A stretch of DNA of 64,000 nt from Rhizobiaceae bacterium (lineage in GTDB: Bacteria > Pseudomonadota > Alphaproteobacteria > Rhizobiales > Rhizobiaceae), in the NCBI GenBank assembly GCA_019635795.1, contig JAHBYV010000016.1, positions 1 through 64,000 on the forward strand, in the 5' to 3' direction. Shown piece after piece: positions 18,661 through 34,790 of the stretch. The notes below the pieces were generated by a model. That model worked only from the letters and a program-made list of their open reading frames with translations, did no database searches and was not told where the DNA came from. A program made the translations under genes and the position numbers. How positions within the stretch are numbered: position 1 is the stretch's first letter; every line of letters begins with the position of its first letter.

Positions 18661-18677
18661 CTTAGAATTATTCTAAG
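18661..18677. promoter_or_regulatory. Irr-type iron control element (ICE) at the nfuA promoter
   Basis: A perfect palindrome, CTTAGAAT-T-ATTCTAAG, has eight-base arms around a central T. This matches the known rhizobial Irr box pattern (TTTAGAA-N3-TTCTAAA). A possible -35 TTGAAA lies at 18636-18641, which would place the palindrome over the -10/start region, 28 bases before the nfuA ATG. That placement suggests repression by Irr when iron is low. The same 16-base core recurs at 34441. Confidence 0.8.
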
Positions 18678-25341: not shown

Positions 25342-27816
25342 TCATTTGCCGCGCGGTTTGGCGCGGCTGGTTGCCTGAGCGGTTGCCGGGTCTTCCGGCC
25401 AGACATGCTTTGGATAGCGCCCGCGCATCTCGGCGCGAACATCCGCCCACGAGCCACGCCAGAAACCGGGCAGATCACTTGTAAGCTGAATGGGGCGGTG
25501 GGCGGGGGAAAGCAGTTCGAGCGTAAGCGGAACCGCGCCGCCGGCAATTGCCGGGTGGCTGCCAAGGCCAAAGAGTTCCTGCACACGTATAGAAAGCGTG
25601 GGGTTCTCGCGCTCATAATCGATTGGAACATTGTTTCCCGAAGGTGCAGCAAAGTGCGTCGGTGCGAGTGCGTCCAGCCGACGTTGCAGATCGTGGGGAA
25701 CCAGCGATAGTAAGCCCATGCGCAATGCAGATGGTTCGAGGCGTTTCAGATCAGCCTCACCAGTCAGGAATGGCTCCAGCCATTCGCCAAGATGCTCGAT
25801 AAGAAATTCGTCAGACATATCCGGCCAGGGATCGCCAAGGCCACGATGCAGCCACATCAGGCGCCGGTGCATCTGCAAGGCATCTTTCGGCCAGGGCAAT
25901 ATGCCAAGGCCATGATCCCGCACGGCTGACAGCACGGCCTGATTTGCTGCGTCGCCCGTTGGCGGGGGCAACATGCGTTCGCCAAGTGTAATAGCTCCGA
26001 GCCGAACAGTCTCACAAACGCGAACCGCGCCGCGCGCCGGGTCGAACTCGACCTTTGTAGATTTCTCGATCCTGTCGCCAAGCGCACCACGAATTTCGGG
26101 CTCTTCAATGGAACACGCAGCCGCGATGCGCGCCGATTGCGCCTTGCCTTGCAGGTCTGCAACGACAAGAAATGGCTGTGCTGCCAGCCGATCAGTTTCG
26201 GGCAAGGAGGCACCGCGTCCATTTGCCAGAACGAAGCTTCCACTTGCGCCACGCGCTTTGGCTACGCGGTCGGGCCAGGCGTGAATAAGCAGATTTCCAA
26301 TGTGCCCGGAGGCACCATCGTGCACTGCAGGCCCGGTTTGACGCGCAAGTCGTTCAGCAAGCTGCCGGGCCGTCACTGCGCGTGTGGAACGATCAGATTT
26401 GAAGCGCGCAAGGCGGTTCTCCAGATCGATCGAATCGCCACCGAGTCCACGCTCTGTGAGGAGGACTGCCAAAAGCGCAGCTTCCAGCGCGTCACCGGTT
26501 TCGGCGGCTTTAGCGACCATATGTGCGAGCCGAACTGGCAAAGCCAGCTTTCGCATGGCCGCTCCTGTTTGCGTTAACCTGCCGGATGCGTCGAGCGCGC
26601 CGAGTTGTTCCAGAAGCGCGCGGGCTTCCGCCAATGCGGCCTTGGGCGGCGGATCGAGAAAGGATAGCTGGGCTGGATCGGAAACGCCGAAGGCAGCGCT
26701 GTCCAGCAACAGGCCGGAAAGGTCCGCCTCAAGTATTTCCGGTGGCGTGAAAGCCGGCAGGGCTGTGGTCTGCTCGGCGCGCCACAGCCGCAGCGCAATG
26801 CCCGGCTGGGTACGACCAGCGCGACCGGCACGCTGGTCCGCGGAAGCGCGGGAGACGCGCACTGTTTCAAGCCGTGTCAAACCTGTTGCAGGTTCAAAGC
26901 GTGGCAGGCGCGAAAGCCCCGAGTCTATGACGACCCGCACGCCATCGATGGTTATCGAGGTTTCAGCGATTGCGGTTGCGAGAACGACCTTGCGATGGCC
27001 GGATGGAGCAGGGCGAATGGCGCGATCCTGCGCCTTGCCATCCATCATGCCGTATAGGGCAACGAGATCAACATTGGCTGGCACCCGCCCTTCCAGACGT
27101 TCGATGGTGCGCTCAATCTCGCGTTGACCCGGCAGAAACGCCAGAACACTGCCCGGTTCGCTGGCCAATACCTCGCGGACAGCTCGCGCCATGGCGTCCT
27201 CGATAGCCTCTCCCGCGGGACGCTCGGAATATCTGACATCGACTGGAAAGCTGCGGCCTTCGCTTTGAATGACGGGGGCATCACCCAGCAGGGAAGCAAC
27301 TCTGGCCCCGTCTATGGTCGCCGACATGACCAGCAACCGCAAATCCGGCCGCAATGCGCCTTGCACGTCGAGCGCCAAAGCAAGTCCGAAGTCTCCGTCC
27401 AGAGAGCGTTCATGGAACTCGTCAAACAGAACGGCGCTAACACCGGCAAGCTCAGGATCATCAAGGATCATGCGCGACAAAACGCTTTCGGTGACCACAA
27501 GAATGCGCGTCGCCGCAGAGGTGCGGGTTTCCATCCGCATGGCATAACCGACCGTTTTGCCAACATCCTCGCCAAGAAGTTCAGCCATGCGCCGTGCCGC
27601 CGCGCGCGCCGCAAGCCTGCGCGGTTCGAGCAGGATGATCTTGCCGTTCGCGGACCAAGGCTGTTCCAGCAGCGCAAGCGGAACCAGGGTCGTTTTGCCA
27701 GCGCCGGGAGGAGCGACCAATACCGCATTACTGGTGGCGGAAAGTGCATCAAGCAGCGAGGGTATCGCTGCGCGAACGGGCAGGTCCAAATCTATCTGGT
27801 CAAAACGCTTTGCCAT
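25342..27816 (-). CDS. hrpB: ATP-dependent helicase HrpB
   Basis: The 824-residue DEAH/DExH-type helicase has Walker A GAGKTTLVPLALL, motif II DEFHERSLDGD (DEFH), motif III SATIDG and motif VI QRAGRAGRTQPG, then the HrpB-specific C-terminal region. The family is widespread in proteobacteria, acts on RNA in vitro-like assays in some species, and its cell role is poorly defined. Length is normal. The gene is divergent from the GFA-family gene. Confidence 0.93.
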   Translation of the reverse strand: MAKRFDQIDLDLPVRAAIPSLLDALSATSNAVLVAPPGAGKTTLVPLALLEQPWSANGKIILLEPRRLAARAAARRMAELLGEDVGKTVGYAMRMETRTSAATRILVVTESVLSRMILDDPELAGVSAVLFDEFHERSLDGDFGLALALDVQGALRPDLRLLVMSATIDGARVASLLGDAPVIQSEGRSFPVDVRYSERPAGEAIEDAMARAVREVLASEPGSVLAFLPGQREIERTIERLEGRVPANVDLVALYGMMDGKAQDRAIRPAPSGHRKVVLATAIAETSITIDGVRVVIDSGLSRLPRFEPATGLTRLETVRVSRASADQRAGRAGRTQPGIALRLWRAEQTTALPAFTPPEILEADLSGLLLDSAAFGVSDPAQLSFLDPPPKAALAEARALLEQLGALDASGRLTQTGAAMRKLALPVRLAHMVAKAAETGDALEAALLAVLLTERGLGGDSIDLENRLARFKSDRSTRAVTARQLAERLARQTGPAVHDGASGHIGNLLIHAWPDRVAKARGASGSFVLANGRGASLPETDRLAAQPFLVVADLQGKAQSARIAAACSIEEPEIRGALGDRIEKSTKVEFDPARGAVRVCETVRLGAITLGERMLPPPTGDAANQAVLSAVRDHGLGILPWPKDALQMHRRLMWLHRGLGDPWPDMSDEFLIEHLGEWLEPFLTGEADLKRLEPSALRMGLLSLVPHDLQRRLDALAPTHFAAPSGNNVPIDYERENPTLSIRVQELFGLGSHPAIAGGAVPLTLELLSPAHRPIQLTSDLPGFWRGSWADVRAEMRGRYPKHVWPEDPATAQATSRAKPRGK

Positions 27817-27932
27817 GCGGTCCGGTTATCAGCTTGCTCATGCGGTTTCCAGACACGGCTTGCGCTGCCCGGGGCGAACGTGCTTGTTTCGCGCCATTCG
27901 CTTTGTCGTGCAGCCAGTTTCGGAGAGAAAGT

Positions 27933-28289
27933 ATGAGCGTTCAATCTTACAAAGGGGGATGCCAGTGCGGTGCCGTTCGCTACGAGGTCGAGGCTGACCT
28001 TGATCATACAGTGACCTGCAATTGCTCCCGGTGCGGACGCCTGGGTTCGATCCTGACATTTGCGCCCAAAGGTTCATTCCGTTTGGTATCCGGCGAAGGC
28101 GCGACGACGGAATATCTTTTCAACAAAAAGGCGATCCATCACCTGTTTTGCAGCACTTGCGGCATTGAATCCTACGCCGTTGGCAAGGGCCCGGATGGCT
28201 CGGAAATGGTGGCGGTGAACGTGCGCTGTCTGGATGGTGTTGAGGCGGGCAGCCTGACACCCAAAAAAGTAGACGGGCGATCGTTCTAG
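27933..28289 (+). CDS. GFA-family (glutathione-dependent formaldehyde-activating fold) protein
   Basis: The 118-residue zinc protein has the GFA/CENP-V Cys motifs: GGCQCGAVRYE, CNCSRCGRLG and FCSTCGIESY. Members bind two zinc ions; only some act on S-hydroxymethylglutathione, so the catalytic role is open. A GAGAG ribosome site precedes the ATG at 27933. It converges with the DUF1513 gene with a four-base overlap, so no room for an ordinary terminator remains between them. Confidence 0.88.
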   Translation: MSVQSYKGGCQCGAVRYEVEADLDHTVTCNCSRCGRLGSILTFAPKGSFRLVSGEGATTEYLFNKKAIHHLFCSTCGIESYAVGKGPDGSEMVAVNVRCLDGVEAGSLTPKKVDGRSF

Positions 28290-29386
28290 AGACGGATTCG
28301 CAGCAGGTGGTTGTCCCACACATAGTCGGGTTCGGTTACCGACGTTGAGTCTGGTGCCACGATCTCGCCCGTGCCAGTGCTTGCCAAAAAGCCGGCATCG
28401 TCAGGGGCGAGACCGCAGACTTCTGTTAGGGTGGTAGCCGACAAGACAGCGCCGCTAGTGGCATCAAGCACCGCATAGGCGTTGCCCTGCGGCGAAGACA
28501 CGGCAATGGTTCCGGCATCGCGATTGGCGGCGACGGAGCCGATATAGTTGCGGAAGCCGCCGAGTATTTCGGCGGGCATATCGACAAGCCCGAAAGCTTT
28601 GCCGCGTTCGGCCTTGCCAATGAGCAGAGGTCGCTCGGATGCGGGGCCTTCATGCTGACAGCCGAACCAGATCGTCCCGCGATGGTCAATGTCCATATGG
28701 CGAATGGAAAGCTTGTGAAGGGCGGATGGCAGCTCGTGCTTCTCCAGCAATTCGCCGGTTTCGCGATCAATGAAAACGAAGGATGGTTTCATGGTGGCCA
28801 GATTGAGCTTGGCCCTGCCGAAATCCGGATGCGTTTCGATACCGCCATTGCAGATCGCGAGACTGTGGCCGTCGCCAAGAAGCACCAGCTCATGCGGCCC
28901 CACGCCATAGGTAGGGAATTCTCCGATGCGGCGAAACCCGTCGCTTGCATCATAAACGCCAACCATGCCTGCGGCATTGTCGAAATCGTTCTCGGTCGCA
29001 TACAGGAGCTTGCCGTCTGGAGAGAACGCGCCGTGTCCATAAAAGTGCCGGCCTTCAACACTGTTGATCGTCAGCGGTTCGGCTTTTCCGCCAGGGTCGA
29101 ACACCACGGCAAATGTTCCGGGCTGTCGGGCAAATACGACGGAGCGGCGCGAGATGGGGTCATATGCAACATCGTGGCCACGTTCCGGCAGGGCAATCGA
29201 GTGAACCAGCTTTCCGCGCTCGGTCAGAATGGCCGCGCCATAGCTTCCATCCCGGCGCTGGAACGCGGTGGCGAAAACGGCATCCGCTTCTGCCGCCATC
29301 GCAATCCCGCGTGGCGTGAGGGACGCAAGAAAGCCCACGCCAGCGGCCTTGAGGAATGCACGGCGGTCTATCAGTTTGCTCACCAC
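28286..29386 (-). CDS. DUF1513 periplasmic beta-propeller-like protein
   Basis: The 366-residue product opens with a twin-arginine signal (DRRAFLKAAGVGFLASL) and an Ala-rich cleavage region, so it is probably exported folded by Tat. The rest resembles DUF1513 proteins, with repeated blade-like segments (GHGAFSPDGKLLYATEN, GPHELVLLGDGHSLAICNGG). Biochemical function is unknown. It starts one base after the second imelysin gene ends and is the last gene of the irpA-bfd-bfr-diheme enzyme-imelysin series. That setting points to periplasmic iron handling. Confidence 0.85.
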   Translation of the reverse strand: MVSKLIDRRAFLKAAGVGFLASLTPRGIAMAAEADAVFATAFQRRDGSYGAAILTERGKLVHSIALPERGHDVAYDPISRRSVVFARQPGTFAVVFDPGGKAEPLTINSVEGRHFYGHGAFSPDGKLLYATENDFDNAAGMVGVYDASDGFRRIGEFPTYGVGPHELVLLGDGHSLAICNGGIETHPDFGRAKLNLATMKPSFVFIDRETGELLEKHELPSALHKLSIRHMDIDHRGTIWFGCQHEGPASERPLLIGKAERGKAFGLVDMPAEILGGFRNYIGSVAANRDAGTIAVSSPQGNAYAVLDATSGAVLSATTLTEVCGLAPDDAGFLASTGTGEIVAPDSTSVTEPDYVWDNHLLRIRL

Positions 29387-30463
29387 TCAATCTCCGTCGA
29401 GTGAAGAAAATCCCGCAGTCAGGTCGAGCGCCCCGGACAAGCGCGTTCCAAACAATTCGGAAAGGCTTGACGTGACCGTTCGGAAATAATCCAGCTTCTG
29501 GCGCTGGTCGGGATCGCGTAGCACCGCGTCAATTGGCTTACCCTTCACGGCAGCAAGGGCATTTTGAGCATTGCCAAATTCGAAACCGATTGAATTGCCA
29601 AGGTACGCATTGTCCCCTGTGGCAAGGTCTGCCATGCGGGAGGCTTCAAACAATTTGTTCAAGCCTTCAATATTGGCGCCGAGCGAAAGCGCGGTTCCGT
29701 TGGATCGCCAGTAAATTGCCTGCTTCGCCTTGTCGCCTTCAGGCTTTTCGCCAAGGAAGCCGTTTGTGCGAACGTCGCGCACAAGTTCAATTCCTTGTAC
29801 GAAGATTTCTATCAGATCGGTGAGTGCTTCGGTGTCGCTGCGGTAAAGGTTGTTCTGCGGCGAAGGGTTCTCCCACGTCTTGGCGAAACCCTCCGGCGCG
29901 TCCCATTCTTTTGAAATGTCGCTGGACATGGAGGAAATATTGTCCGCAACCGCCTGCGCATAGTGGCAGCGAAATGTTTCGCGCCACGCTGCTACATCAT
30001 CGGAACCGGTGCCGAAAAGCAGGAATTCCAGCGCACCGAAACCTTGCATGGCTACACTCTTTTGCGCCAGCCTCTCTGCGTCGATTGCTGTTAGATCCTT
30101 TTGCGCAAGGGCGGCCTGTACCTGCTTCAAGCCGATGCCTTTGCGGTCAGGCCAATGCAGGATGCGGTCGAGCCTGTTTTGCTCGGTCACCGGGCCCAGC
30201 CTTATGATCTCCACCTCGCTCCATGCCAAGGCTGCATTGGTGAAGGCTGCGCGCGCGGCCTCAAGCGCCGATGCGTCACCCGATTTGCAAAGCTTGTCGA
30301 GGGTTGGAACAAGCCGTTCGGTTTCGGTCGCGAGATTGCGATATGCGGGACGCACAAAGCCATCGACTGCGTTCGCAATTGTCTGGTTCCTGGCGCTCGC
30401 GGCAACAATCGAGCAGCCGAGGATAGCTAATGTCGTAGCGAGCGTTTTCATGGAAAAATGCAT
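29387..30463 (-). CDS. Imelysin-family periplasmic protein (second copy)
   Basis: The 358-residue product has a Sec signal peptide (LATTLAILGCSIVAASA) and an imelysin-like helical fold. Where classical imelysins have GxHxxE (here in IrpA as GYHAIE), this one reads GFGALEFLLFG, so the motif His is replaced by Gly. It may therefore bind a different ligand or act as a partner of the diheme oxidoreductase. Its ATG shares one base with the stop of the diheme gene (TAATG), so the two are translationally coupled. Confidence 0.88.
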   Translation of the reverse strand: MHFSMKTLATTLAILGCSIVAASARNQTIANAVDGFVRPAYRNLATETERLVPTLDKLCKSGDASALEAARAAFTNAALAWSEVEIIRLGPVTEQNRLDRILHWPDRKGIGLKQVQAALAQKDLTAIDAERLAQKSVAMQGFGALEFLLFGTGSDDVAAWRETFRCHYAQAVADNISSMSSDISKEWDAPEGFAKTWENPSPQNNLYRSDTEALTDLIEIFVQGIELVRDVRTNGFLGEKPEGDKAKQAIYWRSNGTALSLGANIEGLNKLFEASRMADLATGDNAYLGNSIGFEFGNAQNALAAVKGKPIDAVLRDPDQRQKLDYFRTVTSSLSELFGTRLSGALDLTAGFSSLDGD

Positions 30464-32058
30464 TATAGCGACTCCAGAAAATCGATCAGCTTTTGGCGAT
30501 CAGCAGCCGACAAATTCGCGAATGCGTCACGTGCCGATTGAGCCTCGCCGCCGTGCCAAAGAATGGCTTCAGGAAGGTTTCGCGCCCTCCCGTCATGCAG
30601 GAAGAAGGTATGCCCGTTGACGCGCTTGGTCAGGCCGATGCCCCACAATGGTGGTGTCCGCCACTCCGTACCAGATGCCTCGCCAACCCGTTGGCCATCC
30701 GCCAGACCTTCGCCCATGTCATGCAGCAGAAAATCCGAGTAAGGCCATATGAGCTGGAAGCTGTGTGCCTTGTTCGGGGCGTCCTTGCGCGTGACGAATT
30801 TAGGGGTGTGGCAGGAAATGCATCCGCTTTCATAGAACAGTTTCTTGCCGGCTAGGACATTCGGCTTGTTCAAGCCGCGTCGGGCAGGAACGGCGAGATG
30901 TTGCGAGTAGAAAGTTACGAGGTCCATCACTGGATCAGGCGCCTCCACCGGTCCGAGACGTTCCTGAACCCCAACGGGCATGGCAAGGCACGGAGCCTGC
31001 TTTTCAGTGCAATCACCCCAACTCCTGGGAACGTCAGGCGTTGATATTCCAATGTCGCCGGCAAACGCATCAGCCGATTGTTGGCGAATGCTCGGTGTCT
31101 GCGCCTTCCACCCAAACCGCCCCAGCGTCAGTTCACCGGTCTTGTGGTCACGCATGAGGTTGGGCCTGCCCGATATGCCGTCCGCATTTTTGTCATCCGG
31201 ATCAGCGTTGGCAAGAATGTCAGCCGGGTGGATTTGTTCGACAAGCCCAAGGCCGATCATTTGCGGTGTTACGCGGGGCGACAGTGTTGTGTGCTTGTCC
31301 AGCGCCCCATAGCCGGGGTCTTCCACCGAATATGTTGGCTTGCGCAAGGAAAGCTGAGTGCCGTCACCCAGCGTCACCGGCATTTCCTCATATGTGATTT
31401 TCATTCGCCCTTCGCCGGAAAGTCCGGGGACTGCAAGGTCTTGCAATTGTGCGCCGTAGATAGGGTCTGGGAAATTCAGTGCCCGATGTTCAGCCTGCGC
31501 ACGACGTTCGTCATCGGTCTGAGCCTCGCGAGCCAGACGCAAAAACATCGACGTGCTGTCACTCGCGCCTTCAGGCGGATGACCGCGCCCATCTTTCAAA
31601 TGGCAGCTCTGACACGCACGGGCGTTGAAAAGTGGCCCCAACCCATCCGACGCCTGAGTGGAAGATGGCGAGGACACCCAGACTTTGCGAAACAGGCCAT
31701 TACCCAGCTTGAATGTTGCTTCTTCCTCAAACGTTATGTTGGCGGAAGATTGCGAAAACGCATCCTGATTGGGCCGCTTCTTTGAAGTCCCGGCGCCGCC
31801 CTGCATAAGTTCGAAGTTCTCGGGTCTGGAAAAATCTTTTGTGGGCGCTGTCACTGCTTGCACACGCGCCAGACCCTCTGCATTTAAATCATGACGCGAG
31901 GCACCAAGACCCGGCGGTTCGTCGGCAATAGCGCCACCTGCGGCAAGACACAGAACGAGCAAAATCGTCGCGCGGACGGTTCCGCGCGTGTTCAAATTTG
32001 TAAAATTATTCATGATCGTTAGAGGGCGAATGCGGCGCACCTGAATGTTACGCCGCAT
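30463..32058 (-). CDS. Diheme oxidoreductase (DUF1111, c-type cytochrome, peroxidase-like)
   Basis: The 531-residue exported protein carries two c-type haem sites, CQSCH (early) and CISCH (late), in the di-haem oxidoreductase family (DUF1111), distantly related to MauG and cytochrome c peroxidase. It would act in the periplasm on electron transfer or metal redox chemistry; the substrate is unknown. The start at 32058 has AAGGA seven bases upstream and lies nine bases after the bfr stop. A second ATG at 32013 gives a shorter signal peptide but lacks a ribosome site. The gene sits between bacterioferritin and an imelysin gene. Confidence 0.9.
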   Translation of the reverse strand: MRRNIQVRRIRPLTIMNNFTNLNTRGTVRATILLVLCLAAGGAIADEPPGLGASRHDLNAEGLARVQAVTAPTKDFSRPENFELMQGGAGTSKKRPNQDAFSQSSANITFEEEATFKLGNGLFRKVWVSSPSSTQASDGLGPLFNARACQSCHLKDGRGHPPEGASDSTSMFLRLAREAQTDDERRAQAEHRALNFPDPIYGAQLQDLAVPGLSGEGRMKITYEEMPVTLGDGTQLSLRKPTYSVEDPGYGALDKHTTLSPRVTPQMIGLGLVEQIHPADILANADPDDKNADGISGRPNLMRDHKTGELTLGRFGWKAQTPSIRQQSADAFAGDIGISTPDVPRSWGDCTEKQAPCLAMPVGVQERLGPVEAPDPVMDLVTFYSQHLAVPARRGLNKPNVLAGKKLFYESGCISCHTPKFVTRKDAPNKAHSFQLIWPYSDFLLHDMGEGLADGQRVGEASGTEWRTPPLWGIGLTKRVNGHTFFLHDGRARNLPEAILWHGGEAQSARDAFANLSAADRQKLIDFLESL

Positions 32059-32067
32059 TGCTTTTCC

Positions 32068-32562
32068 TTAGTGAGCGTCCTCGGCTTCGTTGGCCGGGGC
32101 GGCGTTAAGTTGGCCATATTTGGCCTCGCCAATGGTTTCAAGAAGCTGGAGTTGTGTTTCGAGGAAGTCGATGTGGCCTTCTTCGTCGATCAGCAATTCC
32201 TCAAACAGTTTCATGGTGACGTAGTCACCCTTCTCGTTACAAATCTCACGTGATTTCTTGTACGAGGTCCGCGCGTCATACTCGCCGGCAAGGTCGCTTT
32301 CCAGAACTTCCTTTACGCTCTGCCCGATGCGCAGCGGCGCAACTGACTGAAGGTTGGGGTGGCCTTCCAGGAAGATGATGCGGGCCACGAGCTTGTCAGC
32401 GTGCTGCATCTCTTCGATTGATTCCGCGCGTTCCTTTTTCGCGAGGTTCATGAAACCCCAGTCCTCAAGCAATCTGTAGTGCAACCAGTACTGGTTGACC
32501 GCGCCAAGCTCGAGATAGAGGGCTTCGTTAAGCCGCTCGATGATTTCCTTGTCGCCCTTCAT
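32068..32562 (-). CDS. bfr: Bacterioferritin
   Basis: The 164-residue subunit forms the 24-mer haem-containing iron store. Every di-iron ferroxidase ligand matches E. coli Bfr numbering: Glu18, Glu51, His54, Glu94, Glu127 and His130. Met52, the haem axial ligand, is also present. AGGA precedes the ATG at 32562. The start overlaps the end of bfd by 35 bases, so storage and release proteins are made together. The gene lies inside an operon with an Irr-type site upstream, consistent with iron-dependent control. Confidence 0.96.
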
Positions 32563-32839
32563 AGGTCCTGCTCCCAAATTGGACACGTAGTTCTCTAACT
32601 CGGTCCAGGTGTGAAACGACATCTGTTGCGCTCGCCTCCGAACGCGCATGATAGGCTTCGGTTACCCGGATGATTGTTTCGACCACATTTGGGAAGCAGC
32701 CGCAACAACGACCGCGCATACGGAGCCTGTGATAAACTTTCGCAGGAACGATCAATTGCCAGGCATCTTCGTCCAGAAGTTCGAGAATCGTTGCTTCGAT
32801 CTCTTTCTCTGTGATGAGGTTGCAGTGACAAATCAGCAT
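32528..32839 (-). CDS. bfd: Bacterioferritin-associated ferredoxin
   Basis: Bfd is the [2Fe-2S] protein that reduces the core of Bfr to release iron. The 103-residue product has the ligand pattern CHC near the N-terminus (MLICHCN) and CxxC in [13 protein letters not shown]. It is longer than typical Bfd (about 65-90 residues) owing to a basic C-terminal tail that overlaps the bfr start. It lies 44 bases downstream of irpA. Confidence 0.93.
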
Positions 32840-32883
32840 GATTTTCTCTGTGGCTAACGGGTAACCGTCTGGCTGGCTTAGGA

Positions 32884-34185
32884 TTACTGGAAAACCTTGT
32901 CCGGTGAATCCAGACTGTCGGACCCTTCAAAAGCGATAGAGTCGAGCTTCAGCGCCGTGACTGCGCGTTCAATAGACCTTGTTTGATCAACAAGCGCATC
33001 GATCGCGGCCTGCACGGTGGCATTGCCTTCGGCGTTGCCTTCCCCGATTTGCTGGTCATAGGCTTCACCATCCATGGCGCGCTTTTCAATCGCTTCCATT
33101 TTGGCGACCGTTGCATCAAGTTTGCCGCCGAGCTCGGCATCCACCGCCGGATCGGACTCTTTTACGAGGTCAGAGACCGAGGGGCCGGAAACTTCCGTGC
33201 CGTCTATGCGCTTGTAGCTGCCGCGATAGACATTGCGGATGCCTACTGCATCGTAGAGGTGCGAGATGTAAGTGTTGTCTGAAAAGCAATCATGCTCTTC
33301 TTCAGGATCGTGCAGCAAAAGGCCAAGTTTCATGCGCTCTCCAGCCAACTCGCCGTAGGACAATGAACCCATGCCGGTAAAAACGGTTGAAATTCCCTGT
33401 TGAACGTCGCCATCTTCAAGATTCTTGCGAGCAGCGCCGCCATCCTTCCAATTGTCTACCATCTCCTGAAGATCGTTGACGAGAAGGGTGCTTGCAGATT
33501 TCAGATAATCGGCGCGCCGGTCGCAATTGCCTCCGGTGCAGTTTGCCGTATCGTAATCGGTGTAAGGGCGATTTCCCGCCCCCGGTCCGGTACCGTTGAG
33601 GTCCTGACCCCAAAGAAGAAACTCGATTGCATGGTATCCGGTTGCAACATTCGCCTCGATATCACCTGCTTCCTGCAAGGTTTGCGATAGCAACTCCGGA
33701 GTAATCTTTGAGACATCGACTTTTTGTCCGTCGATCTCGATCTCCGTGTTGGCAATTACATTGGCGGTATAAAGCGAATTCTCGTCAGACTCCGAACCGT
33801 AAGAGCTGTCTACATAGTCGATCAGGCCTTCGTCCAATGGCCATGCATTCACCCGGCCTTCCCAATCGTCCACAATGGCATTGCCGAAACGAAAGACTTC
33901 AGATTGCTGATAGGGGATGCGCGCTGCTTTCCATGCCTCGCGAGCCGCTTCCAGCGATTGCGCGGATGGATTTGCAATAAGGGCGTCAATTGCCGTGTTG
34001 AGGGATTTTGCTGTGGTGAGCGAGTCCTCGAATACCGCCAGCGCAATGTCAGAGTATGTTTTGATAATTTCTTTCGGCGCGGTTTCTGCCTTGGCCGGAA
34101 GCACAAACACCGCTGCGGTGAGTGCTGCCGTTGCCGCGATAGCCGCAAAACGTCTATGACGCTTCGTCACGAGCGAATTCCTCAT
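32884..34185 (-). CDS. irpA: Imelysin family iron-regulated protein IrpA
   Basis: The 433-residue product has a signal peptide (RHRRFAAIAATAALTAAVFV) and the imelysin fold with the intact GxHxxE motif (ATGYHAIEFLLWGQD). IrpA-type proteins are iron-regulated and located in the periplasm or outer membrane, with a role in iron uptake inferred from mutants. The start at 34185 has GGGAG six bases upstream. The gene begins a six-gene minus-strand series, and an Irr-type palindrome lies 256 bases upstream of the ATG. Confidence 0.92.
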   Translation of the reverse strand: MRNSLVTKRHRRFAAIAATAALTAAVFVLPAKAETAPKEIIKTYSDIALAVFEDSLTTAKSLNTAIDALIANPSAQSLEAAREAWKAARIPYQQSEVFRFGNAIVDDWEGRVNAWPLDEGLIDYVDSSYGSESDENSLYTANVIANTEIEIDGQKVDVSKITPELLSQTLQEAGDIEANVATGYHAIEFLLWGQDLNGTGPGAGNRPYTDYDTANCTGGNCDRRADYLKSASTLLVNDLQEMVDNWKDGGAARKNLEDGDVQQGISTVFTGMGSLSYGELAGERMKLGLLLHDPEEEHDCFSDNTYISHLYDAVGIRNVYRGSYKRIDGTEVSGPSVSDLVKESDPAVDAELGGKLDATVAKMEAIEKRAMDGEAYDQQIGEGNAEGNATVQAAIDALVDQTRSIERAVTALKLDSIAFEGSDSLDSPDKVFQ

Positions 34186-34440
34186 CAAAAACTCCCTGAA
34201 AAATTGGATAGAAGCGATATCGACGCCGGCGAGCACGTGCCAGCGCGCACAAACATGCGCAGCAAATTGGGATTGAGACAGCAATGGGAACGCCCGCGAA
34301 AGGGCGCGTAACAGATCATTTTCACCATTTCCTCCAATCGATTGGGTTCAAGGCCCAAACATCAAAGGTTCGTCGGCCATAAAGCCGAATCTATAGCCCG
34401 TGTCAATAAAATATGTCGCAAAACCCTTATATTTCAATAT
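34186..34440 (-). promoter_or_regulatory. Long leader and candidate promoter of the irpA operon
   Basis: No gene is supported here. On the minus strand a TTGACA (34406-34401) is followed 17 bases later by TTTATG (34383-34378), a reasonable -35 with a weak -10. This would give a leader of roughly 180 bases before the irpA ATG. The leader contains a small GC-rich hairpin, CGCCC (34291-34295) with GGGCG (34302-34306). The frame stays open upstream of irpA to 34284 but lacks a good start. Confidence 0.4.
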
Positions 34441-34457
34441 CTTAGAATTATTCTAAA
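34441..34457. promoter_or_regulatory. Irr-type iron control element upstream of irpA
   Basis: CTTAGAATTATTCTAAA shares its first 16 bases with the palindrome at the nfuA promoter. It lies about 35 bases upstream of the candidate -35 box of irpA. In rhizobia an Irr site upstream of the promoter has been linked to activation and one over the promoter to repression. That rule would predict opposite responses for irpA and nfuA, which is inference. Confidence 0.78.
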
Positions 34458-34790
34458 CTAGAAATGTCCAGTTTAATGCGCGGGAAAGTACAGGTGGATT
34501 GTCTGTTTGAAAAAGGATGGAACGGCGAACCAGCAATCAGTCAAGATCAAGTCGCGAGAAGCTCGCTCAGATCGAATTGCCTATAGGCATAATCATATCT
34601 ATGAATAGTCGGGATTATAGGAAATCATACCCACGAATTCGATTGGAATACTCTTGGAAATACTATTCTGCTTCACGACCTACTCATGCTGCGACGCAAA
34701 AATTGCCTTTGAATGGTCAAATTGTCGTCACGACATCTGCACGTTTGGTTTCTAGGCGGCTCGCAACGTTAATAGCTTAGGAACTACCTG
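34458..34790. other. AT-rich intergenic region, no supported gene
   Basis: This stretch of about 330 bases between the Irr-type site and the RlpA-like gene is visibly richer in A and T than its neighbours. A frame of 87 codons (34517-34780) has no family resemblance, no ribosome site and odd composition, so I do not call it a gene. A short hairpin GCGAG-AA-GCTCGC region (about 34552-34566) is present. It may hold promoters or a small RNA, or be the scar of an insertion. Confidence 0.4.

What the first reader, a model, noticed from the sequence alone, without database searches (positions are those of the whole stretch)
28286..34185. Six-gene periplasmic iron module with bacterioferritin built in
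irpA, bfd, bfr, a diheme oxidoreductase, a second imelysin and a Tat-exported DUF1513 protein run head to tail with overlaps or gaps of 54 bases or less. Four are periplasmic or exported proteins of poorly known function, and two are cytoplasmic iron storage and release proteins. One Irr-type site precedes all six. The set looks like a single system linking periplasmic iron capture or redox change to storage. The imelysin/DUF1111/imelysin/DUF1513 set is seen in other proteobacteria, but its mechanism is not established. The bfd-bfr insertion between the parts is the notable feature here.
Basis: partly seen in the sequence, partly recalled or inferred. Interest (0 to 1): 0.75.

Follow-up and report, generated by a model that had tools for sequence, protein, structure and literature searches.

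The report
Irr-controlled iron operon with RNA leader
Six iron-handling genes really do sit in one tight row here, but that gene order is already known from another bacterium; the new part is a conserved, probably folded RNA leader, shared with other iron-storage genes, that may set how much protein the genes make.

Summary
The six genes are there, on the minus strand, in the order irpA-bfd-bfr-DHOR(DUF1111)-imelysin-DUF1513. Junctions run from a 35-nt overlap to a 44-nt gap, and a perfect Irr-type ICE lies upstream (34442-34456). The arrangement is not new: Remes et al. 2015 (passages read) say dRNA-seq strongly suggests that R. sphaeroides co-transcribes hemP-irpA-bfd-bfr with RSP_1545-1543, under IscR. 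I found bfd-bfr between irpA and DHOR in 22 of 141 loci (18 of 61 from the window's family). In the 80 best named relatives it is in 33, including 25 of 25 Mesorhizobium, but in 0 of 23 Rhizobium and 0 of 6 Agrobacterium. In the window's family bfr is nearly always single-copy, in this operon or elsewhere.

New here: in this lineage the operon has a conserved 5' leader (34282-34391) with a predicted hairpin that pairs with a Shine-Dalgarno, followed by a leader ORF whose stop overlaps the irpA start. The same leader precedes standalone bfd-bfr and an unnamed Cys-rich gene; it was found in 35 of 121 family genomes and matched no Rfam family. A direct periplasm-to-storage pathway is not shown; shared regulation is the safer reading. 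Whether Irr represses or activates here is open.

The parts
34442..34456 (-). ICE (Irr box) TTAGAATAATTCTAA
   Evidence: perfect match; perfect in 16 of 17 bfr-containing family operons read with full upstream (L033 1 mismatch) and in two loci that lost bfr (searched up to 900 nt upstream); motif recalled, Irr binding not tested
34378..34406 (-). predicted promoter TTGACA-N17-TTTATG, 35 nt after the ICE
   Evidence: TTGAC 34-38 nt after the ICE in 19 of 19 loci, TTTAT or TTTAA at N17 in only 9 of 19. Not listed by the consensus scan, which gives TTGAAA-16-CATATT at 34437-34410 and TTGAAA-18-TATTTT instead
34282..34391 (-). conserved 5' leader element (model R1 hit, 75.8 bits); core 34332-34366, P1 CCUUUGAU/AUUGGAGG, P2 GGG/CCC
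   Evidence: the window is one of the 33 seed sequences of the model
34185..34325 (-). leader ORF (46 aa, GTG at +41 of the core); its TGA overlaps the irpA ATG by 1 nt
32884..34185 (-). irpA, canonical imelysin (GxHxxE)
   Evidence: Pfam M75 1.3e-91; 7xrx (insulin-cleaving metalloproteinase outer membrane protein) E 2.3e-128
32528..32839 (-). bfd, bacterioferritin-associated ferredoxin
   Evidence: Fer2_BFD 2.8e-5, below cut-off; conserved next to bfr
32068..32562 (-). bfr, bacterioferritin
   Evidence: TIGR00754 184.8 bits, over cut-off; ligand positions
30463..32058 (-). DHOR/DUF1111 diheme c-type oxidoreductase
   Evidence: PF06537 9.6e-99 (run from the inner start 32022); two CxxCH; no PDB sequence relative to E 1
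29387..30463 (-). second imelysin-like protein (GxxxxE variant)
   Evidence: Pfam M75 5e-48; 3pf0 imelysin-like protein best PDB match, 1e-11
28286..29386 (-). DUF1513 protein with Tat-like N-terminus
   Evidence: PF07433 2e-112; motif read from the sequence

Best explanation
A six-gene alphaproteobacterial iron operon of a kind already known in R. sphaeroides, here probably controlled at two levels. Shown: gene order, its conservation, a conserved ICE and TTGAC element, and a conserved leader with a leader ORF whose stop overlaps the irpA start. Inferred: Irr sets transcription from the ICE. The nascent leader folds so that P1 pairs with the leader ORF's Shine-Dalgarno; opening it lets ribosomes translate the leader ORF, and their arrival at the overlapping stop/start lets irpA be translated. 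The protein steps are inferred from family knowledge: the two imelysins bind iron in the periplasm, DHOR changes its redox state or removes peroxide, the DUF1513 protein assists, while Bfr stores iron in the cytoplasm and Bfd reduces Bfr to release it. The two halves most likely share regulation and an iron budget rather than forming a direct conduit, because no inner-membrane permease is among the six genes.
For: Order and domains. R. sphaeroides co-transcription statement: PMC4618611 passages. Recurrence: 22 of 141 loci. ICE perfect in 16 of 17, TTGAC in 19 of 19. Leader core with up to 3 mismatches: 28 places in 26 of 121 genomes, reversed-pattern control 0 in all 121. R1: 40 matches in 35 of 121 genomes, 30 of 80 named loci, 1 of 80 other loci. 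P1+P2 paired in 96.7% of cells against 28.4-71.2% for slid versions. A start codon at +38 to +43 in 31 of 33, exactly +41 in 22. Leader-ORF stop overlaps or abuts a possible start of the next gene in 15 of 32 in the +41 frame against 3 and 3 of 32 in the other two frames.
Against: No transcript data for this lineage. Covariation is weak: 2 of 11 pairs with double changes, and 11 of 500 shuffles reach the score; the P3 hairpin is not supported (mean z -0.52). The leader core is so conserved that a DNA site or a small-RNA target could explain it. The model was built from 33 of these leaders, so many of its matches are by construction. Two of 33 leaders have no start codon there, and several leader ORFs do not couple. 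The ICE lies upstream of the TTGACA element, which fits activation as well as repression; the -10 element is poorly conserved.
Confidence: 0.66

Rival explanations
1. The six products form one physical pathway: periplasmic imelysin/DHOR proteins capture iron and change its redox state, and it is delivered to Bfr for storage.
For: Tight packing and one control region; the junction irpA-bfd-bfr-DHOR recurs in the window's family and in f20.
Against: No permease among the six; 119 of 141 loci lack bfd-bfr at that junction; standalone bfd-bfr is common.
Confidence: 0.2
2. The conserved leader is not a regulatory RNA structure but a binding site (a DNA operator inside the transcribed region, or a small-RNA target) or an encoded peptide.
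For: Core nearly invariant, covariation weak. The two most variable core positions are third codon positions of a potential FDVWALNPFDWR reading.
Against: In the window that frame holds no ATG, GTG or TTG between its upstream TAG and the motif. RNAalifold predicts P1+P2 without being given them; mean folding z -1.83 (P0), -1.15 (P1P2), -1.18 (P4) against -0.04 for a control segment; start codon position and coupling.
Confidence: 0.27
3. The bfd-bfr insertion was acquired by recent horizontal transfer of the whole operon between alphaproteobacterial families.
For: Same junction in the window's family and in f20.
Against: Bfr of the window's family, operon or standalone, form one group (99/84) with f20 Bfr outside it and standalone Bfr of other families of the order between (bootstrap not settled); the four core proteins also keep f20 apart.
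Confidence: 0.07

Closest known systems
R. sphaeroides hemP-irpA-bfd-bfr-RSP_1545-1544-1543 (Remes et al. 2015, PMC4618611; passages read)
   Same: The same genes in the same order as far as the printed names go (1545 is called a probable thiol oxidoreductase with two haem sites, 1544 and 1543 hypothetical); reported as probably one transcript
   Different: Starts with hemP and is repressed by Fe-S IscR through Iron-Rhodo-boxes; irpA, bfd and bfr rise under iron limitation (PMC3413700 passages). Here an Irr-type ICE and the leader are found instead.
Fur-regulated imelysin operons PA4370-PA4373 and VC1264-1266 (PMC3143127; passages read)
   Same: GxHxxE imelysin, DUF1111, GxxxxE imelysin set
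   Different: No bfd-bfr named in the passages; 0 of 21 loci from outside the class examined here have it
Bradyrhizobium japonicum bfr (PMC4902296; passages read)
   Same: bacterioferritin gene as Irr target
   Different: repressed by Irr and derepressed by iron; no irpA operon or leader in the passages read
EfeUOB(M) iron transporter (recalled, and PMC3143127 passages)
   Same: imelysin-type proteins with a haem peroxidase partner
   Different: no EfeU/Ftr1 permease among the six genes
Copper-responsive upstream ORF of Bordetella (organism recalled; PMC9426467, seen only as title and abstract start in the listing)
   Same: metal operon said to be controlled after transcription by an upstream ORF
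   Different: other metal, other genes; mechanism not compared

Membership tests
imelysin-DUF1111-imelysin-DUF1513 operon | four genes in this order on one strand | tested here: met
   window, and 133 of 141 loci counted from the listings; extra genes allowed between irpA and DHOR
imelysin-DUF1111-imelysin-DUF1513 operon | first imelysin GxHxxE, second GxxxxE | tested here: met
   best PDB relatives 7xrx and 3pf0
imelysin-DUF1111-imelysin-DUF1513 operon | two c-type haem sites in the DUF1111 protein | tested here: met
   CQSCH and CISCH
R. sphaeroides-type irpA-bfd-bfr-DHOR operon | bfd-bfr between irpA and DHOR | tested here: met
R. sphaeroides-type irpA-bfd-bfr-DHOR operon | hemP at the 5' end | tested here: inconclusive
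   no HemP-like ORF recognised by eye among ORFs of 50 aa or more between 34185 and 34780; no model was run
R. sphaeroides-type irpA-bfd-bfr-DHOR operon | IscR control by Iron-Rhodo-box | not tested
   an ICE is present; the Iron-Rhodo-box was not searched for
Irr regulon | ICE conserved upstream | tested here: met
   motif itself recalled
Irr regulon | Irr gene in the genome | tested here: met
   Fur-family gene with an HHH stretch beside fabA/fabB; assignment by eye
Irr regulon | Irr binds and iron changes expression | not testable with these tools
   needs EMSA and RNA data
EfeUOB | Ftr1-type permease in the operon | tested here: not met
   six genes identified, none is a permease
known Rfam RNA class | match over gathering score at the leader | tested here: not met
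   cmscan of window 27800-34700 and of six leader loci; no listed match reaches its gathering score

The most novel reading that the evidence does not exclude
The leader is a new class of cis-acting regulatory RNA in the order of rhizobia that senses iron status (iron, haem or a related signal) and gates translation of iron-storage and iron-handling operons through a coupled leader ORF, below Irr.
Probability: 0.25. Interest if true: 0.85.

Novelty: new variant of a known kind. Interest (0 to 1): 0.5.

Why it matters
What imelysin-DUF1111-DUF1513 operons do is still unclear. Here the same gene order sits under different regulators in two lineages (IscR in Rhodobacter; an Irr box plus a leader in Mesorhizobium relatives), so measuring when each is expressed would help say whether the periplasmic proteins serve uptake or protection. 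The shared leader is a compact, directly testable candidate for RNA-level control of bacterioferritin.

Tried and rejected
Brucella as the source: first guess from genome size and recollection; dropped because same-genus G118 contig 1 has the length of Mesorhizobium denitrificans LA-28 contig_1 (534,275 bp). Leader as a conserved peptide: rejected for the window because that frame has no usual start. Leader as belonging to bfr alone: rejected, since Breoghania (L273, 60.1 bits) and L113 (36.4 bits) carry it in loci where no bfr was found by the operon. Single insertion in the window's family: an early tree gave one clade of 20; adding Hoeflea, Salaquimonas, Nitratireductor and others made an older operon with later losses at least as likely (11 changes, at least 6 forced), so the origin is left open. 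Internal terminators or promoters: no more than in shuffles. Rodionov 2006 is not held, so its ICE lists could not be read. The Brucella DAP-seq paper: none of the terms bacterioferritin, bfr, imelysin, irpA was found in its main text. Structure of the Cys-rich protein not obtained. Print on the leader: only two searches used leader or RNA words; no listed title or abstract start describes it, and an S. meliloti RNA survey has no bfr, bacterioferritin or irr in its main text. That does not prove absence.
Full report
Observation. The six genes are open, head to tail on the minus strand, with junctions from a 35-nt overlap to a 44-nt gap. Family matches are clear for five and just under the cut-off for bfd. 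Key residues are in place: Bfr positions, GxHxxE in irpA, GxxxxE in the second imelysin, two CxxCH in DHOR. IrpA is closest to 7xrx and the second imelysin to 3pf0; DHOR has no sequence relative in the PDB up to E 1, and DUF1513 only weak ones (best E 0.0039).

Organism. The genome is 3.26 Mb in 30 contigs. Its same-genus relative G118 has a contig of the same length as Mesorhizobium denitrificans LA-28 contig_1, so I take the window to come from a relative of that species, not from Brucella as I first guessed. I could not name it.

Conservation. DUF1513 matches occur in 76 of 121 family genomes, 59 of 289 class genomes and 76 of 299 phylum genomes at E up to 0.001, including some weak or partial ones. 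I read gene order in 140 fetched loci plus the window. These are the strong hits of the family (60 fetched) and chosen parts of the class and phylum hits, so they are not a random sample. Counted from the listings, 133 of 141 have irpA-DHOR-imelysin-DUF1513 in that order on one strand; the other 8 are L066, L122, L126, L132, L138, L156, L164 and L171, some of them cut by contig ends. bfd-bfr lies between irpA and DHOR in 22: 18 of 61 from the window's family and 4 from an unnamed family f20, which I take to be Rhodobacteraceae. None of the 21 loci from outside the class has it. By coordinates read, bfr lies within about 4 kb of DUF1513 in 22 of 76 DUF1513-positive family genomes (partly the same genomes as the 18), and none of these has a second Bfr over the cut-off. 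Bfr was found in 90 of 121 family genomes, once in all but three. In the standalone loci cut out and read, bfd usually lies just before bfr. Of 553 named relatives of irpA the 80 best were kept: 33 have bfd-bfr, namely 25 of 25 titled Mesorhizobium and 8 others (Oryzicola, Nitratireductor, two Hoeflea, Salaquimonas, three family-level MAGs), against 0 of 23 Rhizobium and 0 of 6 Agrobacterium.

Origin. In the Bfr tree (74 rows), Bfr of the window's family, in or out of the operon, form one group (99/84). The f20 operon Bfr lie outside, with standalone Bfr of other families of the order between (bootstrap not settled). A four-protein tree of 96 rows (quick method) needs 11 changes of the bfr state, at least 6 forced. 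An ancient operon with repeated losses and repeated insertion both remain possible. G073 keeps bfd without bfr (L165), a loss caught half-way.

Already known. Remes et al. 2015 (PMC4618611; passages) state that dRNA-seq strongly suggests RSP_1545-1543 are co-transcribed with hemP-irpA-bfd-bfr in R. sphaeroides, with IscR sites before hemP and inside the operon. Peuser et al. 2012 (PMC3413700; passages) give wild-type ratios under iron limitation of 4.05 (irpA), 2.71 (bfd) and 1.99 (bfr).

Control region. The ICE is perfect in 16 of 17 bfr-containing family operons whose upstream was read (L033 has one mismatch; L152 is cut off by the contig end) and in two loci that lost bfr. TTGAC follows 34-38 nt later in all 19, but a TTTAT/TTTAA at the right distance only in 9 of 19. 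Among bfr-less family loci and others the box is absent or degenerate. Other sites with up to one mismatch in this genome lie near an NfuA-like gene (window 18662), an iron-binding ABC protein, a cysteine desulfurase, and one (C3:6439) near no evident iron gene (genes named by eye). The reversed control pattern gave 4 hits against 9 for the pattern (palindromic sites counted twice). The sign is open: Irr represses bfr in Bradyrhizobium (PMC4902296, passages) and Brucella Bfr was lower (0.43) inside host cells (PMC5587712, passages), but the ICE centre lies about 78 nt upstream of the start that I would predict from TTGACA-N17-TTTATG.

Leader. Just after that element is a 35-nt core (34332-34366). 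With up to 3 mismatches it occurs 28 times in 26 of 121 family genomes; the reversed pattern occurs 0 times. It lies before fused irpA-bfd-bfr operons, before standalone bfd-bfr, and before a Cys-rich gene of about 170 aa. A covariance model from 33 leaders (window included) finds 40 matches in 35 of 121 family genomes, many of them its own seeds. Read against, 32 of the 40 lie within about 3 kb upstream of bfr. Of the other eight, three precede the Cys-rich gene, one (G073) the irpA-bfd operon, one (G115) lies about 4.6 kb upstream of DUF1513 with bfr on another contig, one (G050 C5) precedes a sulfate-binding-like protein (by eye), and two (G119 C41, G096) were not read. It finds 30 of 80 named loci and 1 of 80 other loci. 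No Rfam family matched over its gathering score.

Structure. RNAalifold alone predicts an 8-bp P1 that pairs the GGAG(G) Shine-Dalgarno and a 3-bp P2. 96.7% of cells pair, against 28-71% when slid; covariation is modest (2 pairs with double changes; shuffles reach the score in 11 of 500). Mean folding z over 33 leaders: -1.83 upstream hairpin, -1.15 P1/P2, -0.52 P3, -1.18 P4, -0.04 control segment. A start codon lies at +38 to +43 in 31 of 33, at exactly +41 in 22. The ORF in the +41 frame ends overlapping or abutting a possible start of the next gene in 15 of 32, against 3 and 3 of 32 for the other frames, whether that gene is irpA, bfd or the Cys-rich gene (in several leaders the start is shifted by one or two bases, so another frame is the relevant one). 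In the window the 46-aa ORF ends in TGATG at irpA. In L037, L165 and L180 it runs in frame into the next gene.

Reading. The most economical account is a known operon type with an Irr promoter and a translation-gating leader. The leader's signal is unknown. The protein roles are inferred from families; none is shown here.

Noticed in passing
L241:6460-6966, L255:6468-6971, L262:6487-6990, L195:464-970, L235:420-941: Cys-rich protein of about 170 aa (CxxCPL..FPFGAHHxCRDEC, ends VH) encoded between the leader and irpA or bfd, or alone after the leader. Three members have no Pfam match and no credible NCBIfam match. One member gave no match in the window genome (no positive control).
   Followed up: partly
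window 18662-18676: Second perfect ICE, 30 nt before the ATG (18706) of an NfuA/NifU-like scaffold protein (named by eye).
   Followed up: partly
L034, L038, L041, L135, L140, L163, L170 upstream of irpA: Several bfr-less irpA operons of the family share a different promoter block, TTNAAANNNTTCTAAACTATACNCTTTGACA or close to it, with a half-ICE directly before the TTGACA.
   Followed up: no
L075 and L285: In two related genomes (L285 is titled Kiloniella) bfr lies upstream of irpA instead of between irpA and DHOR.
   Followed up: no
L308: Achromobacter aegrifaciens carries an irpA 67% identical to the window's with the full four-gene set, a possible transfer between classes.
   Followed up: no
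L165: bfd remains between irpA and DHOR although bfr is gone; G073 is not among the genomes with a Bfr match.
   Followed up: no
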